DNA from: Candidatus Hydrogenedentota bacterium
Lineage (GTDB): Bacteria; Hydrogenedentota; Hydrogenedentia; Hydrogenedentales; JAEUWI01
Reading direction: 5' to 3'
DNA length: 33,002 nucleotides
NCBI GenBank assembly: GCA_016182605.1
Contig: JACPGE010000020.1
Coordinates: forward strand, 1-33,002
Each line of letters starts with the position of its first letter. Within the stretch, counting starts at the first letter, position 1. Of the stretch, positions 135 to 33,002 are shown piece by piece. The translations under genes were made by a program, and so were the position numbers. The notes under the pieces were generated by a model. It made no database searches and was not told the DNA's origin. It worked only from the letters and a program-made list of their open reading frames with translations.

Positions 135-1583
135 CTAGTGATTCCATTTGTATATGGTATCGTCACCTCCGCCCGAAAAGGCCCATCGGCCATCCGGACT
201 AAATGCAACACTCCAAACTTTGTCGGAATGCCCTTGAAAGAGTTGGTCGTATACTCCAAAATTGAGATTCCATATCCGTACCGTATGGTCCTCGGAGCCA
301 GAGAGAGCCCATAACCCGTCAGGACTGTACGATACGCTTGTGACTGGCGCCGTGTGTCTCCTGATTACGCGAATGCATTTACCTGTACTGGATTTCCAGA
401 ATCGTAGAGTGTCGTCGTGGGCGCCAGACAGGATAGATTTACCGTCGGGACTGAATGCCACGCTGAATACGGATCCAGTATGCCCCTTCAGCACATGGAC
501 GCATTCTCCCGATTTGAGGTCCCATAGTCGTATTTCAGCTCCGGCTGCCCCGGAAGCCGCAAATCGTCCATTAGGGCTGTACGCCACACTGTGAATGACT
601 CCGTTGTGCCCGTCGAGCACACGCACGCATTTGCCCGTTTTGACGTCCCAGAGCCGCAAAGTGTAGTCTCTCCCCCCCGAGAGTATCGATAGTCCGTCCG
701 GACTGAATGTCACACTGTTGAGCAAAGCACTGTGGCCTTCGAGCAAGAAGATGCATTTGCCAGTTTTGGCGTTCCATAATCGCAAAATTGGGTCATAGCC
801 CCCTGAGAGGGCGTGCTGGCCATCTGGACTAAAGGCCACACTATTAACCTTATCTGTGTGTCCTTCGAGGACGCGCAGGCAGCGACCGCTTTGCGTGTCC
901 CACAGCCGCACCGCATTATCATCGGCCCCGGAGAGGGCGTACTGGCCGTCTGGACTGAAGGCCACGCCATTGACCCCACCGGAGTGGCCTTCGAGGACAC
1001 GCAGGCAGCGACGGCTTTGCGTGTCCCACAGCCGCACCGTATAATCGTCGGCCCCGGAGAGCGCTTGCTGACCGTCCGGACTGAAGGCCACGCTCCGGAC
1101 CGCGTCGGTGTGTCCCAGCGACCACGCCGCGACCTGAAAATTTTCCTGGATCTCCGGAGAAAGGGGTGTAGGGGCGGGGCGGCAGGCGCCAGCCAGCTTA
1201 CCGTAGGCCGCCTCCCGATCCGCGTCTTTCTGCCAGTCAATATACAAAAACTGCGCCAGGGAGCCTTTGGCGGGTGCCTCGTCGAGGCGCAAGGGGATGA
1301 AGCGGCGCTCCTGATTCAGCGGATCGCGGAAGCGGAAGGTACCCGCTTCCAGTTGGGCCCAGTCCGAGCCGAAGGCGTTGGCGGACATGCAGAGGACGAG
1401 TACACGGGTGTTTTCCAGGCCCGCCTCGATCTTCGCGGGAATGCTGTCGCCGGGCTTAAGTTCCCATTCGTCGAACCATACCCGCAGGCCGTCGGCCCTG
1501 AGGCGTTCGGCTATCTCGCGGACGATCGGCTTGTCCTTTGCGCTGTGACTGATGAAGACGTCGTGGGTGAAGGACTCACGCAT
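135..1583 (-). CDS. TIR domain - WD40 beta-propeller protein
   Basis: 482 aa with two parts. Residues about 6-120 are a TIR domain: FISHSAKD near the N-terminus, then WFDEWELKPGDSI, and SDWAQLEAG with Glu79 at the position used as the catalytic glutamate in NAD-cleaving TIR proteins. Residues about 156-482 are eight WD40 repeats of 42 aa with GH, FSPDG, SGxxDxxxRLW and GxCxxxL signatures, enough for one closed propeller. No signal peptide or membrane segment is present, so it should be cytoplasmic. Family knowledge: bacterial TIR domains often hydrolyse NAD or make cyclic ADP-ribose signals in phage defence, with the fused repeats acting as sensor or scaffold. That role is inference here. A weak AAGG precedes the ATG at 1583. 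It stands alone; no partner defence gene is adjacent. Blades 1 and 2 are nearly identical in DNA, suggesting recent blade duplication or exchange. Confidence 0.9.
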   Translation of the reverse strand: MRESFTHDVFISHSAKDKPIVREIAERLRADGLRVWFDEWELKPGDSIPAKIEAGLENTRVLVLCMSANAFGSDWAQLEAGTFRFRDPLNQERRFIPLRLDEAPAKGSLAQFLYIDWQKDADREAAYGKLAGACRPAPTPLSPEIQENFQVAAWSLGHTDAVRSVAFSPDGQQALSGADDYTVRLWDTQSRRCLRVLEGHSGGVNGVAFSPDGQYALSGADDNAVRLWDTQSGRCLRVLEGHTDKVNSVAFSPDGQHALSGGYDPILRLWNAKTGKCIFLLEGHSALLNSVTFSPDGLSILSGGRDYTLRLWDVKTGKCVRVLDGHNGVIHSVAYSPNGRFAASGAAGAEIRLWDLKSGECVHVLKGHTGSVFSVAFSPDGKSILSGAHDDTLRFWKSSTGKCIRVIRRHTAPVTSVSYSPDGLWALSGSEDHTVRIWNLNFGVYDQLFQGHSDKVWSVAFSPDGRWAFSGGGDDTIYKWNH

Positions 1584-1956
1584 GGGTACGCTGCCTTGAA
1601 ATTGGCGTGCGGTGCTGTGGATTCGCGGGCTCGCGCGGGTCTTGATTCATGGCGTCTCTCTCGTTACCTCGCGGGTAGCAGAGGTGAAGGTGCGATTCTT
1701 AAGTTGGCGGGTACAGTCCCTCGCCGGTGCTGGCTATCTTACCGGGTCGTGGCATTGCAGGCCGGCAGGTACAGTCCCCTTGGGCATCAAAGTTTTGGAT
1801 TTGCAAACCGGCGGACACCTTCCCCTGAGTACGATCCTGTGTGACTAAATCCTGACGAATACAGCCCTCTCTCTGTGTACACGGAATCCTACTTATCCCG
1901 TCTTGCCAAGTCAATGGTTGGCAATCAGGCATGGGCACACCGGATTCACCATCCCC
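1584..1956. other. Intergenic region with a dispersed repeat and a hairpin
   Basis: 373 bp between the TIR-WD40 start and the stop of the beta-helix gene. It holds one copy of the GGGTAC...GTCCCC repeat (1709-1779) and a hairpin at 1903-1924 (TTGCCAA / TTGGCAA, 8-nt loop) just beyond the beta-helix stop. The hairpin has no T-run, so it is at best a weak terminator. I see no convincing gene, RNA or promoter in the rest. Confidence 0.5.
1709..1779 (+). repeat. Isolated copy of the ~72-bp GTCCC hairpin repeat
   Basis: 71 bp starting GGGTACAGTCCCT and ending GCCGGCAGGTACAGTCCCC. The two ends are direct repeats of GGTACAGTCCC, and just inside them GCCGG and CCGGC form an inverted repeat. The final 19 bases are the exact reverse complement of a motif occurring five times in the array at 32116-32892, so this is the same family about 30 kb away. 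It resembles a REP-type palindromic element. Confidence 0.7.
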
Positions 1957-28574: not shown

Positions 28575-28646
28575 GGGGGCTGTCCCCGCCGGTCCCACAA
28601 ACCCCAATCCCGCAGCACCGTCCCGCACCGGCGAGGGGCTGTCCCC
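28575..28646 (+). repeat. 72-bp GTCCC hairpin repeat, GGCTGTCCC subtype
   Basis: Begins GGGGGCTGTCCCCGCCGG and ends CACCGGCGAGGGGCTGTCCCC. The inner GCCGG / CCGGC pair can form a stem. A second 72-bp copy with the same ends and a similar middle is at 30248-30319. Length and order of motifs match the GGGTAC subtype at 1709 and 32379, so both appear to belong to one repeat superfamily. Confidence 0.75.
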
Positions 28647-29897: not shown

Positions 29898-30247
29898 CCG
29901 CACCTCTCGTTTGGACTGCGGTTCCAGGGACCGAGTGCAACAAAAGGACATAGTATTGGGGGGCTTCCCTCTTTTTCCCTCTTTTTTGTCTTTTTCCGTG
30001 TGGTCCGTGCTGCGCGAAGCGCCCAGAGATGCCCTTCGCTCGATGGCGAAGGGATTGCCCATCGAAGCACCCGAACAGCCCCCTTGCACGCACGGGATCG
30101 CCCAACAGCAAGTTCCTCAACAGTCAACTCCACTTCCCCCCAAGGCCGCTTCTGTTCGCTACACACCGTACGCGTTGACGCGCCAATCACGACGCTCGTC
30201 GAGCGACGTGCTACTTCGAAAGCGTCGATGCTTACTTCAACAAACAA

Positions 30248-30319
30248 GGGGGCTGTCCCCGCCGGGCGCCACAGACCCCGGCCCCGCAGCACCATCCCAC
30301 ACCGGCGAGGGGCTGTCCC
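30248..30319 (+). repeat. 72-bp GTCCC hairpin repeat, GGCTGTCCC subtype, second copy
   Basis: Same ends as the copy at 28575-28646 (GGGGGCTGTCCCCGCCGG at the left, CACCGGCGAGGGGCTGTCCC at the right). The middle shares CCCGCAGCACC but differs at scattered positions, so the copies are not very recent. Its right end touches the inverted repeat that begins at 30317. Confidence 0.75.
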
Positions 30320-30572
30320 GAATGGCCCTAACTTAAGGACCTGGCTCGAAGCATTGCCACGTAAAAACACGTGAATGACATCAACAAACCGGACAAAGTA
30401 GGCCTTCGCTCGCCGAGCGTAGGCATTTCCACACGAGCCAGCCGCGCCACACTCTAACAATGACGTTCCAAACGTTGAAATGGTCCCCCTTCGAAGGGGG
30501 AAGGGGGATGTAAAAAGCTTACGCAAGACCAGACACCAGCATGACTTGTCTCTTAAGTTAGCGCCATTCGGG
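30317..30572. repeat. 256-bp segment with 21-bp inverted ends (MITE-like)
   Basis: The left end 30317-30337 (CCCGAATGGCCCTAACTTAAG) is the inverse complement of the right end 30552-30572 at 20 of 21 positions. The interior has no gene and includes the TTCGAA palindrome at 30484. GGGGCTGTCCC lies at both outer borders in direct orientation. The arrangement fits a small non-autonomous element or a repeat inverted by recombination. Confidence 0.55.
30484..30508. repeat. Short relative of the 3745 palindrome
   Basis: TCCCCCTTCGAAGGGGGA followed by AGGGGGAT. It shares the core and right-arm bases of the 52-bp palindrome at 3745-3796 but lacks the outer arms and the internal TTA. Confidence 0.6.
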
Positions 30573-31091: not shown

Positions 31092-32057
31092 ATGAAAAAG
31101 CACGGTTTCACCCTCATCGAACTCTTGGTGGTTATCGCCATCATCGGCATCTTGGCCGCCATCCTGCTCCCGGCGCTCGCCCGCGCCCGCGAAGCAGCCC
31201 GCCGCGCAAGCTGTCAGAACAATCTGAAGCAGCTCGGTATCGTCTTCAAAATGTACTCCAATGAATCGAAGGGCGAAAAGTACCCCGCAATGGCGGCTCA
31301 GATTTCGTACGAGAATGACGAAGTCGACGGGTTGCGGGTTAATACCTATGCTACTTGCGGCTATCCGAATCCCTACGCGGACAACGGCTCCGGTGGCGAC
31401 GCGGAATTCGTCATGGATGGTACTTCGGTTTACCCCGAATATCTTACGGATATGAACGTGCTCGTCTGCCCCTCCGATGCCAGCGCGGACACTGCATTGG
31501 GTTCGGCAGGTGTTTGGTACAACCAAACCGAACTGGCTCTTGGCAACGAACAGATCGATCCTTGCGCCCTGACGGCGGAATCCTACCTCTACCTCGGCTG
31601 GGCCATCAACGGCCGCCCCGGCCAGGATTACCTCCTGGATGGCGTGGACGCGAATGATCCGGGCGTGCCGACCGGACTCACCCTGCTTGGCTCCTTTGTC
31701 GATCCGTTGTTTGTTGGTGCTCTTATTGGATTGATCGACGGCAATGCCACAGCATCTGAAGGCTACGATCAGGAAGTCGAATTCACCACGACCGGTGGTC
31801 TTGACCGCACCCTGTATCGTACCCGCGAAGGCATCGAGCGCTTCTTCATCACGGACATCAACAATCCGGCCGGCTCCGCGGAAGCCCAGAGCACCATCGC
31901 CATCATGGGCGATTTGGTGAGCACGACGACCGCCGAATACAACCACATCCCCGGCGGATCGAACTGGCTCTTCATGGATGGTCACGTGTCCTTCCAGCGC
32001 TTCCCGAGCGACTTCCCGACCACCCGCGCCTTTGCGTCGCTGATTGCCCTGTTCTAA
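31092..32057 (+). CDS. Type II secretion pseudopilin-like protein (H-X-DG family)
   Basis: 321 aa, ATG at 31092, AGGAGG ten bases upstream. It starts with a prepilin leader, MKKHG, then [20 protein letters not shown] with Glu10 (the +5 glutamate), so prepilin peptidase should cut after Gly5. The helix continues through [22 protein letters not shown]. The C-terminal half is beta-rich and ends with [18 protein letters not shown], the H...DG signature of the large DUF1559-related families of Planctomycetes, Lentisphaerae and Hydrogenedentota. Dozens of copies per genome are usual in those groups; the role is generally unknown, probably surface or periplasmic fibre or secretion-related. It has a strong promoter, a strong terminator and no operon partner, so it is likely a highly expressed single gene. 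Confidence 0.92.
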
Positions 32058-32115: not shown

Positions 32116-32892
32116 TTGCGAATCCCTGCGCCAAGGGGAGCGCCACGGGGACTGTACCTGCCGGCAAACAAGTCCCTGAACCGGACTCAAGCCGCGCACC
32201 GGCAGGGACTGTTGCGAATCCCTGCGCCAAGGGGAGCGCCACGGGGACTGTACCTGCCGGCAAACACAAGTCCCTGAACTGGACTCAAGCCGCGCACCGG
32301 CAGGGACTGTACCCAAGAACCAGCGCACACTACTTTGCGCCACGGGGACCAAGAAGCGGCGCTCTCCAAGTTGCGCTCGGGTACGGTCCCTTGCCGTTGT
32401 AAATCTCCAGACCCGTTCGTGGTCTTGCACACCGGCAAGGTACAGTCCCCTCAGCCCACGTTCGCTTCTGTCAAACAGCATACTTTTGCAACGCCACGGG
32501 GACTGTACCTGCCGGCAAACAGTCCCCTCAGCCCACGTTCGCTTCTGTCAAACAGCATACTTTTGCAACGCCACGGGGACTGTACCTGCCGGCAAACAAA
32601 TCCCTGAACTGGACTCAAGTCGCGCACCGGCAGGGACTGTACCCAAGAACCAACGCACACTACTCTGCGCCACAGGAACCAAGAAGCGCCGCCCTCCAAT
32701 TTACGCTCGGGTACGGTCCCTTGCCGTTGTAAATCTCCAGACCCGTTCTCGGTCTTGCACTCCGGTAAGCTACAGTCCCCTCAGCGCACGTTCGCTTCTT
32801 CAAACAGCATACTTTTGCAACGCAACGGGGACTGTACCTGCCGGCAAACAAGTCCCTGAACCGGGCTCAAGCCGCGTACCGGCAGGGACTGT
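32116..32892. repeat. BIME-like array of GTCCC hairpin repeats in alternating orientation
   Basis: 777 bp built from a ~66-72 bp unit. Minus-strand copies lie at 32147-32212, 32243-32314, 32575-32644 and 32827-32892; plus-strand copies at 32379-32450 and 32709-32780; a truncated minus copy at 32498-32520. Read in its own direction a unit starts GGGTACnGTCCCT, has inverted GCCGG / CCGGC parts, and ends GGTACAGTCCCC. Linkers are of two kinds: about 64 bp (CCAAGAACC...) and about 46 bp (TCAGC...ACGTTCGCTTCT). A 96-bp direct duplication begins at 32116 and 32212, and a 77-bp one at 32496 and 32573. The layout is that of REP elements in BIMEs. No gene is supported here: frames through it encode only repeated low-complexity peptides. 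Confidence 0.85.
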
Positions 32893-32925
32893 TAGCATGC
32901 ATAGGCGTGGTTTTTTCAAGCGGAG

Positions 32926-33002
32926 ATGAAAAAGTGGGAAGCCTCCGGGCAATATTCGCAAATCGAATGGCGTGGACCGACGGGTCGGCCACGAAACCCA
33001 AG
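32926..33002 (+). CDS. Possible N-terminal fragment of an unidentified protein, cut by the window edge
   Basis: An ATG at 32926 opens a frame of 25 codons that runs off the window (MKKWEASGQYSQIEWRGPTG, then RPRNP). GGAG touches the ATG, which is too close for an ideal ribosome-binding site. The same DNA can fold into hairpins (ATTCG/CGAAT and CGTGG-CCGAC/GTCGG-CCACG), so it could instead be non-coding. I do not recognise the peptide. Its position right after the repeat array makes it worth extending. Confidence 0.25.
   Translation, partial: MKKWEASGQYSQIEWRGPTGRPRNP

What the first reader, a model, noticed from the sequence alone, without database searches (positions are those of the whole stretch)
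32116..32892. Mosaic array of ~70-bp hairpin repeats in alternating orientation
Six full or nearly full units and one truncated unit alternate between strands, joined by two recurring linker types, and share GGTAC(A/G)GTCCC ends with an inner GCCGG/CCGGC stem. Differences between copies partly keep pairing (AGTCC/GGACT in one copy, AGTCC/GGGCT with a G-T pair in another). This is the design of BIMEs made of REP elements, but with a GTCCC foot that is not the classic enterobacterial REP sequence. The unit may be mobilised by a REP-associated tyrosine transposase encoded elsewhere.
Basis: partly seen in the sequence, partly recalled or inferred. Interest (0 to 1): 0.6.

Follow-up and report, generated by a model that had tools for sequence, protein, structure and literature searches.

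The report
Direct-footed RAYT-linked DNA hairpin repeats
The array is the largest assembled cluster of a genome-wide family of about 100 small intergenic DNA hairpins in a probable Hydrogenedentota bacterium; two REP-type transposase genes are flanked by the same hairpins, which makes them very probably tiny passengers of that transposase, in an unusual form with the same end sequence on both sides of the stem.

Summary
In detail: six units plus one fragment lie at 32147-32892, though orientation is not strictly alternating. The unit is a genome-wide family. The foot GGTACRGTCCC occurs 195 times (reversed control 4), the two-foot unit 76 times (control 0); about 104 units fall in about 65 clusters, nearly all intergenic. 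The foot is a direct repeat on both sides of an 8-bp stem. The stem arms covary: 71 of 95 units are perfectly complementary (permutation maximum 31) with almost no G.T pairs, pointing to a DNA hairpin rather than an RNA. Two Y1 transposase genes (83% identical; NHIH/YVELNP; predicted fold closest to E. coli TnpA-REP) are flanked on both sides by these units. By motif they belong to the RAYT group called TIRYT or subclass 2.1, for which Quentin et al. found no REP-like sequences. Hairpins beside related RAYTs have inverted feet; direct feet were seen beside a RAYT only here. Seven solo feet look like precise loss of the hairpin. An IS110-like element sits in the foot at all 24 IS ends found, including the one that cuts the last unit and ends the window. 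Mobilisation by the RAYT is inferred, not shown. New variant of a known kind.

The parts
32147..32212 (-). Unit 1; 5' foot replaced beyond ACAGTCCC (joined to 31-bp linker)
32244..32313 (-). Unit 2, both feet perfect
32314..32379 (.). Linker 1 (66 bp); 92% identical copy next to units in contig C120
32380..32449 (+). Unit 3, both feet perfect, stem CCTTGCCG/CGGCAAGG
32450..32497 (.). Linker 2 (about 47 bp); 98% identical copy in contig C120
32498..32521 (-). Unit fragment made by a 77-bp tandem duplication joint
32576..32643 (-). Unit 5, both feet perfect
32710..32779 (+). Unit 6, one change in the 3' foot
32828..32892 (-). Unit 7, 5' foot interrupted by the IS end
32893..33002 (+). Transposase-proximal end of an IS110-like insertion sequence, inserted in the foot of unit 7; start codon lies just beyond the contig end in longer copies
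1710..1778 (+). A further, single intergenic unit of the same family in the window
28576..28645 (-). Related second family (feet GGGACAGCCCC / GGGGCTGTCCC), intergenic
30249..30319 (-). Related second family, intergenic

Best explanation
The array is a cluster of non-autonomous, REP-like elements mobilised (now or recently) by the RAYT-type Y1 single-strand transposases encoded on contigs C72 and C89. Each unit is foot (GGTACRGTC), an 8-bp stem (CCNNNCNG/CNGNNNGG), a free loop of about 34 nt, and the foot again (TACRGTCCC), with preferred flanks TTCCCG...CTTGGG. Shown: genome-wide family, direct feet, stem covariation, intergenic location, flanking of two RAYT genes, solo feet. Inferred: the transposase binds the hairpin in single-stranded DNA (for example at the replication fork), cuts at equivalent points in the two feet, and joins or inserts the excised hairpin; excision leaves one foot. 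The array itself then grew by ordinary tandem duplication, and an IS110-family element used a foot as its target.
For: 195 feet vs 4 control; 76 two-foot units vs 0; 147 covariance-model hits among 150 scored candidates, including a second family. Variable stem pairs 90-97% Watson-Crick vs about 50-60% expected; 71/95 perfect arms vs permutation mean 17.5, maximum 31, and G.T only 0.4% in register vs 5-21% when slid. 102/104 units intergenic. RAYT on C72 (581-1219) and C89 each have units within about 150 bp on both sides. RAYT has invariant H60, H62, Y119, N123, P124 across 46 homologues; model pLDDT 94.5; best PDB fold match 4er8, RAYT bound to a REP hairpin, E 2e-8 (by sequence E 2.5e-6). 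The two-foot unit is essentially private to this genome among 68 of the phylum (76 vs 0 to 1), as expected if tied to its own RAYT. Seven perfect solo feet with both flank motifs, control 0; on C72 the solo foot at 1641 repeats the upstream flank of the intact unit at 1551.
Against: No excision or insertion was observed and no empty site in a related genome could be compared (nearest relatives differ at genus level). Solo feet can also arise by replication slippage between direct repeats across a hairpin. The array's growth looks like tandem duplication, not transposition. The foot does not match GTAG, and subclass 2.1 RAYTs have been reported as not REP-associated (PMC6006769).
Confidence: 0.8

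Rival explanations
1. Relic family: units were spread in the past by a RAYT but now change only by recombination, tandem duplication and slippage; the transposase is a domesticated bystander.
For: Array joints look like tandem duplications; inner loops have diverged strongly while feet and stem remain; half of neighbouring pairs are direct repeats.
Against: Feet and stems of about 100 units stay nearly perfect while loops diverge, and both RAYT genes are intact.
Confidence: 0.35
2. The units are RNA elements or terminators selected for transcript structure, not mobile DNA.
For: Intergenic position; strong hairpins.
Against: G.T pairs almost absent in the covarying stem; conserved direct feet outside the stem and no T-run; no Rfam match above its gathering score; flanking of two transposase genes.
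Confidence: 0.05
3. The units are passive target sites kept by, or derived from, the IS110-like element rather than a RAYT system.
For: All 13 transposase-proximal and all 11 distal IS ends abut the foot.
Against: Only about 13 IS copies for about 100 units; stem covariation and RAYT flanking are unexplained; IS110 elements elsewhere use pre-existing REPs as targets (PMC1525189, PMC11208160).
Confidence: 0.04

Closest known systems
TIRYT / TIRtron (Di Nocera et al. 2013, PMC3733652) = TnpA-Y1 subclass 2.1 (Quentin et al. 2018, PMC6006769; corresponds to Bertels group 1 there)
   Same: RAYT-like Y1 protein with NHxH and YxELNP motifs flanked by inverted copies of a repeat with a GGGGAC-type core; moderately abundant repeats of the same sequence elsewhere in the genome.
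   Different: Here the repeat is a covarying hairpin with DIRECT feet and about 100 copies; Quentin et al. found no REP-like sequences for 2.1. Core is GGGGACTG, one base off the published GGGGWSAS.
REP / BIME / REPtron of E. coli and Pseudomonas (PMC2817692, PMC3733652)
   Same: Multi-copy intergenic hairpins, clustered in mixed orientation, flanking a RAYT gene; predicted fold of the RAYT closest to E. coli TnpA-REP (4er8).
   Different: Foot GGTACRGTCCC instead of GTAG; about 69 bp rather than 20-40; foot on both sides.
Double-foot REPs of subclass 2.4 (PMC6006769)
   Same: Foot sequence at both ends of a hairpin.
   Different: Their second foot is the reverse complement of the first; here both feet read the same way. 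Hairpins beside other relatives of this RAYT also have inverted feet.
IS110-family elements that insert in REPs (IS621, ISPpu9, ISPpu10, ISPa11; PMC1525189, PMC11208160, PMC11187229)
   Same: A DEDD-type element inserted at one exact place in a RAYT-associated repeat.
   Different: Target is the GGTACAGTCCC foot; IS body not assembled here and its guide RNA not identified.

Membership tests
Classical REP (GTAG type) | 5' GT[AG]G tetranucleotide at the foot of the hairpin | tested here: not met
   Feet are GGTACRGTCCC in 70 units used.
Classical REP (GTAG type) | High-copy, intergenic, palindromic | tested here: met
   About 104 units, 102 intergenic, covarying stem.
BIME | Repeats regularly in alternating orientation | tested here: inconclusive
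   True in parts of the array; genome-wide 21 opposite-strand vs 19 same-strand neighbours.
REPtron / TIRtron | Y1/RAYT gene flanked on both sides by the repeat in inverted orientation | tested here: met
   C72: unit 453-519 (-) and 1253-1321 (+) around gene 581-1219; C89 likewise.
TIRYT, subclass 2.1 | NH[V/Y/F]H, W[EQ], Y[I/V]xLNP motifs and a C-terminal extension | tested here: met
   NHIH, WQ, YVELNP, helical C-terminus with high pLDDT; the hydrophobic residue is I rather than V/Y/F.
TIRYT, subclass 2.1 | GGGGWSAS motif in the flanking inverted repeats | tested here: not met
   C72/C89 feet read GGGGACTG (one mismatch); the C77 RAYT has GGGGACAG, and 30 of 74 homologous loci have GGG[AT]C[AT]G on both sides, commonly about 55 bp upstream.
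TIRYT, subclass 2.1 | HTH/DnaA-C-like C-terminal domain by Pfam | tested here: not met
   Pfam finds only Y1_Tnp.
NCBIfam REP_Tyr_transpos (NF047646) | Score above curated cut-off 80 bits | tested here: not met
   70.5, 74.9 and 62.9 bits.
IS110 family (for the element at 32893-33002) | DEDD transposase | tested here: inconclusive
   IS body absent in this assembly; the 80% identical element in a relative encodes 95 aa that match PF01548 at E 2.5e-5, 24.6 bits, cut-off 29.
RAYT-mobilised element | Strand-specific cleavage by the transposase | not testable with these tools
   Needs protein and DNA assay.

The most novel reading that the evidence does not exclude
The direct-footed unit is a minimal single-strand transposon: the RAYT cuts the same point in both identical feet, releases the hairpin and leaves one foot, so that solo feet are true excision scars, and subclass 2.1 RAYTs are active mobilisers of hairpins with a geometry not described before.
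Probability: 0.3. Interest if true: 0.65.

Novelty: new variant of a known kind. Interest (0 to 1): 0.5.

Why it matters
RAYTs of subclass 2.1 are among the most widespread (14.9% of species in PMC6006769) but have been described as lacking REP-like partners. This genome offers about 100 covarying hairpins tied to two such genes, occupied and solo-foot versions, and a second mobile element (IS110-like) that reads the same foot. That makes the question of what these RAYTs act on directly testable in vitro.

Tried and rejected
Inner AGTCC/GGACT hairpin as a conserved structure: not supported. Alternating orientation as a family rule: not supported. Truncations at GGGACTGT in several units as a sign of a transposase cut site: explained instead by IS insertion in seven of them. 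Rfam: no family above its gathering score for the array or the IS ends. Exact two-foot search beside 96 RAYT loci was too strict, as it missed the C72 units; the looser search showed inverted feet in relatives and direct feet only here. A first reading of ORFs near the related IS end in G010 as the IS body was wrong; the coding part lies on the other side and is IS110-like. MAFFT misaligned the stem of the TTGCCG-type units, so covariation was counted on sequences anchored at both ends. Bertels et al. 2017 is not held in the library.

Full report
What is in the window. The window is the whole of contig C79 of a 6.76-Mb draft genome in 130 contigs. The array at 32147-32892 lies downstream of a pilin-like ([14 protein letters not shown]) gene that ends at 32057. 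It holds six units and one fragment; read in unit sense a unit is GGTACRGTC, stem CCNNNCNG, about 34 nt of loop, stem CNGNNNGG, TACRGTCCC. The order of strands is - - + -(fragment) - + -. Repeats with start-to-start spacings of 96, 77 and 330 bp show growth by tandem duplication. A module of linker 1, unit, linker 2, unit is present at 92-95% identity in contig C120, bounded there also by feet.

It is a genome-wide family. GGTACRGTCCC is found 195 times (98 and 97 on the two strands; the reversed pattern 4 times). The two-foot pattern is found 76 times, 38 on each strand, control 0. A covariance model gave 147 hits among 150 scored candidates, the weaker ones belonging to a related second family with feet GGGACAGCCCC/GGGGCTGTCCC. 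About 104 first-family units form about 65 clusters: 34 single, 25 pairs, 5 triplets and this array. With a codon-usage gene caller trained on genes of this window, 102 of 104 units are intergenic although 73% of the surrounding sequence is coding.

Stem covariation. Anchoring units at both ends, the four variable stem pairs are 90-97% Watson-Crick where shuffled partners give about 48-61%. Seventy-one of 95 units have perfectly complementary six-base arms in several haplotypes (TGCCGG, CGCCGG, TTGCCG, CACCGG, TCGCCG, CGACGG, TCCCGG), against a permutation mean of 17.5 and maximum of 31 in 5,000. G.T pairs make up 0.4% in register and 5-21% when one arm is slid. Absence of G.T is what a DNA hairpin would give and argues against an RNA. 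The loop shows no shared fold (mean z -0.31).

The transposase. Ten Y1_Tnp genes or fragments are present. Two of them, on C72 (581-1219) and C89, 83% identical, are flanked on both sides by units with the 5' foot towards the gene. With about 65 clusters in 6.76 Mb, a cluster within 150 bp on both sides of even one of ten genes by chance has a probability of the order of 1e-5 (own estimate). The protein has invariant H60, H62, Y119, N123 and P124 over 46 homologues, a confident model (pLDDT 94.5), and its best fold match in the PDB is 4er8, the E. coli RAYT bound to a REP hairpin (E 2e-8; by profile E 2.5e-6). The motifs NHIH, WQ and YVELNP place it by inference in subclass 2.1 of Quentin et al. 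(PMC6006769), the TIRYT group of Di Nocera et al. (PMC3733652). The former found no REP-like sequences with that subclass; the latter described inverted repeats sharing GGGGWSAS.

Relatives. Among 68 genomes of the phylum, 43 have a homologue of the RAYT, but the GGTACRGTCCC two-foot unit is abundant only here (76 vs 0 or 1). G036 has the same RAYT coordinates and identities as records titled Candidatus Hydrogenedentota, so the phylum is very probably Hydrogenedentota (inference). Of 74 homologous RAYT loci in many phyla, 30 have a GGG[AT]C[AT]G motif on both sides, usually about 55 bp upstream and in inverted orientation downstream. Hairpins beside those genes have inverted feet, for instance GGGGACAGTCACC...GGTGACTGTCCC; the direct-foot form was found beside RAYTs only in this genome. 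Single direct-foot copies with a different stem occur in two related genomes (G004, G006).

Solo feet. Seven sites carry both flank motifs around one foot, CCGGGTACRGTCCCCTTGG, control 0. On C72 the solo foot at 1641 follows the same upstream flank (GCGTGAGTTCCCG) as the intact unit at 1551, so the hairpin was lost, or gained, precisely between feet. Transposase excision and slippage across direct repeats both predict this.

The insertion sequence. From 32893 to the contig end runs the end of a mobile element. It is found at 13 contig ends, 98-100% identical, and all 13 abut ACAGTCCC; the opposite end is found 11 times, always next to the other half of the foot, GGTACA. The feet hit include 5' feet and 3' or solo feet. 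The body is not in the assembly, but an 80% identical element in genome G010 encodes the start of an IS110-type transposase (PF01548, E 2.5e-5, below the curated cut-off), and both its copies also sit at GCTAACAG next to that genome's own hairpin feet. Insertion of IS110-family elements into REPs is well known (PMC1525189, PMC11208160, PMC11187229). This explains why unit 7 is truncated and why the contig stops here.

Reading. The best explanation is a non-autonomous, REP-like element family of a subclass 2.1 RAYT, in a direct-foot form. That it works like a REP family is well supported; that it is a classical REP is not (the foot is not GTAG). Mobilisation, cut sites and excision are inferred. 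No paper on RAYT-linked repeats in Hydrogenedentota was found in the library searched.

Noticed in passing
window 32893-33002; L182-L194, L197, L209, L216, L302: IS110-like element inserted in the unit foot at every one of 24 sequenced IS ends; body unassembled. Possible 3-bp overlap ACA at the two junctions.
   Followed up: partly
L011:1-141 compared with L198:1501-1570: The distal noncoding end of the IS has CCGGTAC where a relative whose target reads GGGACA has CCGGTCCC, followed in both by AAGAACAGCGG; it may be part of a target-guide RNA.
   Followed up: no
window 28576-28645 and 30249-30319: Second family with feet GGGGCTGTCCC (52 two-foot copies in the genome), followed at 30312 by GAATGGCCCTAACTTAAG, which recurs after other solo feet.
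   Followed up: partly
window about 30150-30215 and 30395-30420; L028, L029, L031: Another palindromic repeat (GCTCGNCGAGC type, with AAGTAGGCCTTCGCTCGCCGAGCG) that also lies beside other Y1 transposase genes of this genome.
   Followed up: no
L195 about 1000-1150 (minus strand): Related genome G010 has an adenine-rich reading frame RGGGWNNNFNNCRLINRNNNTPTNTNNNIGLRL next to the IS end, resembling the template repeat of a diversity-generating retroelement.
   Followed up: no
L149 (C88:17474-17598): Two identical units in tandem that share one foot (foot-hairpin-foot-hairpin-foot).
   Followed up: no
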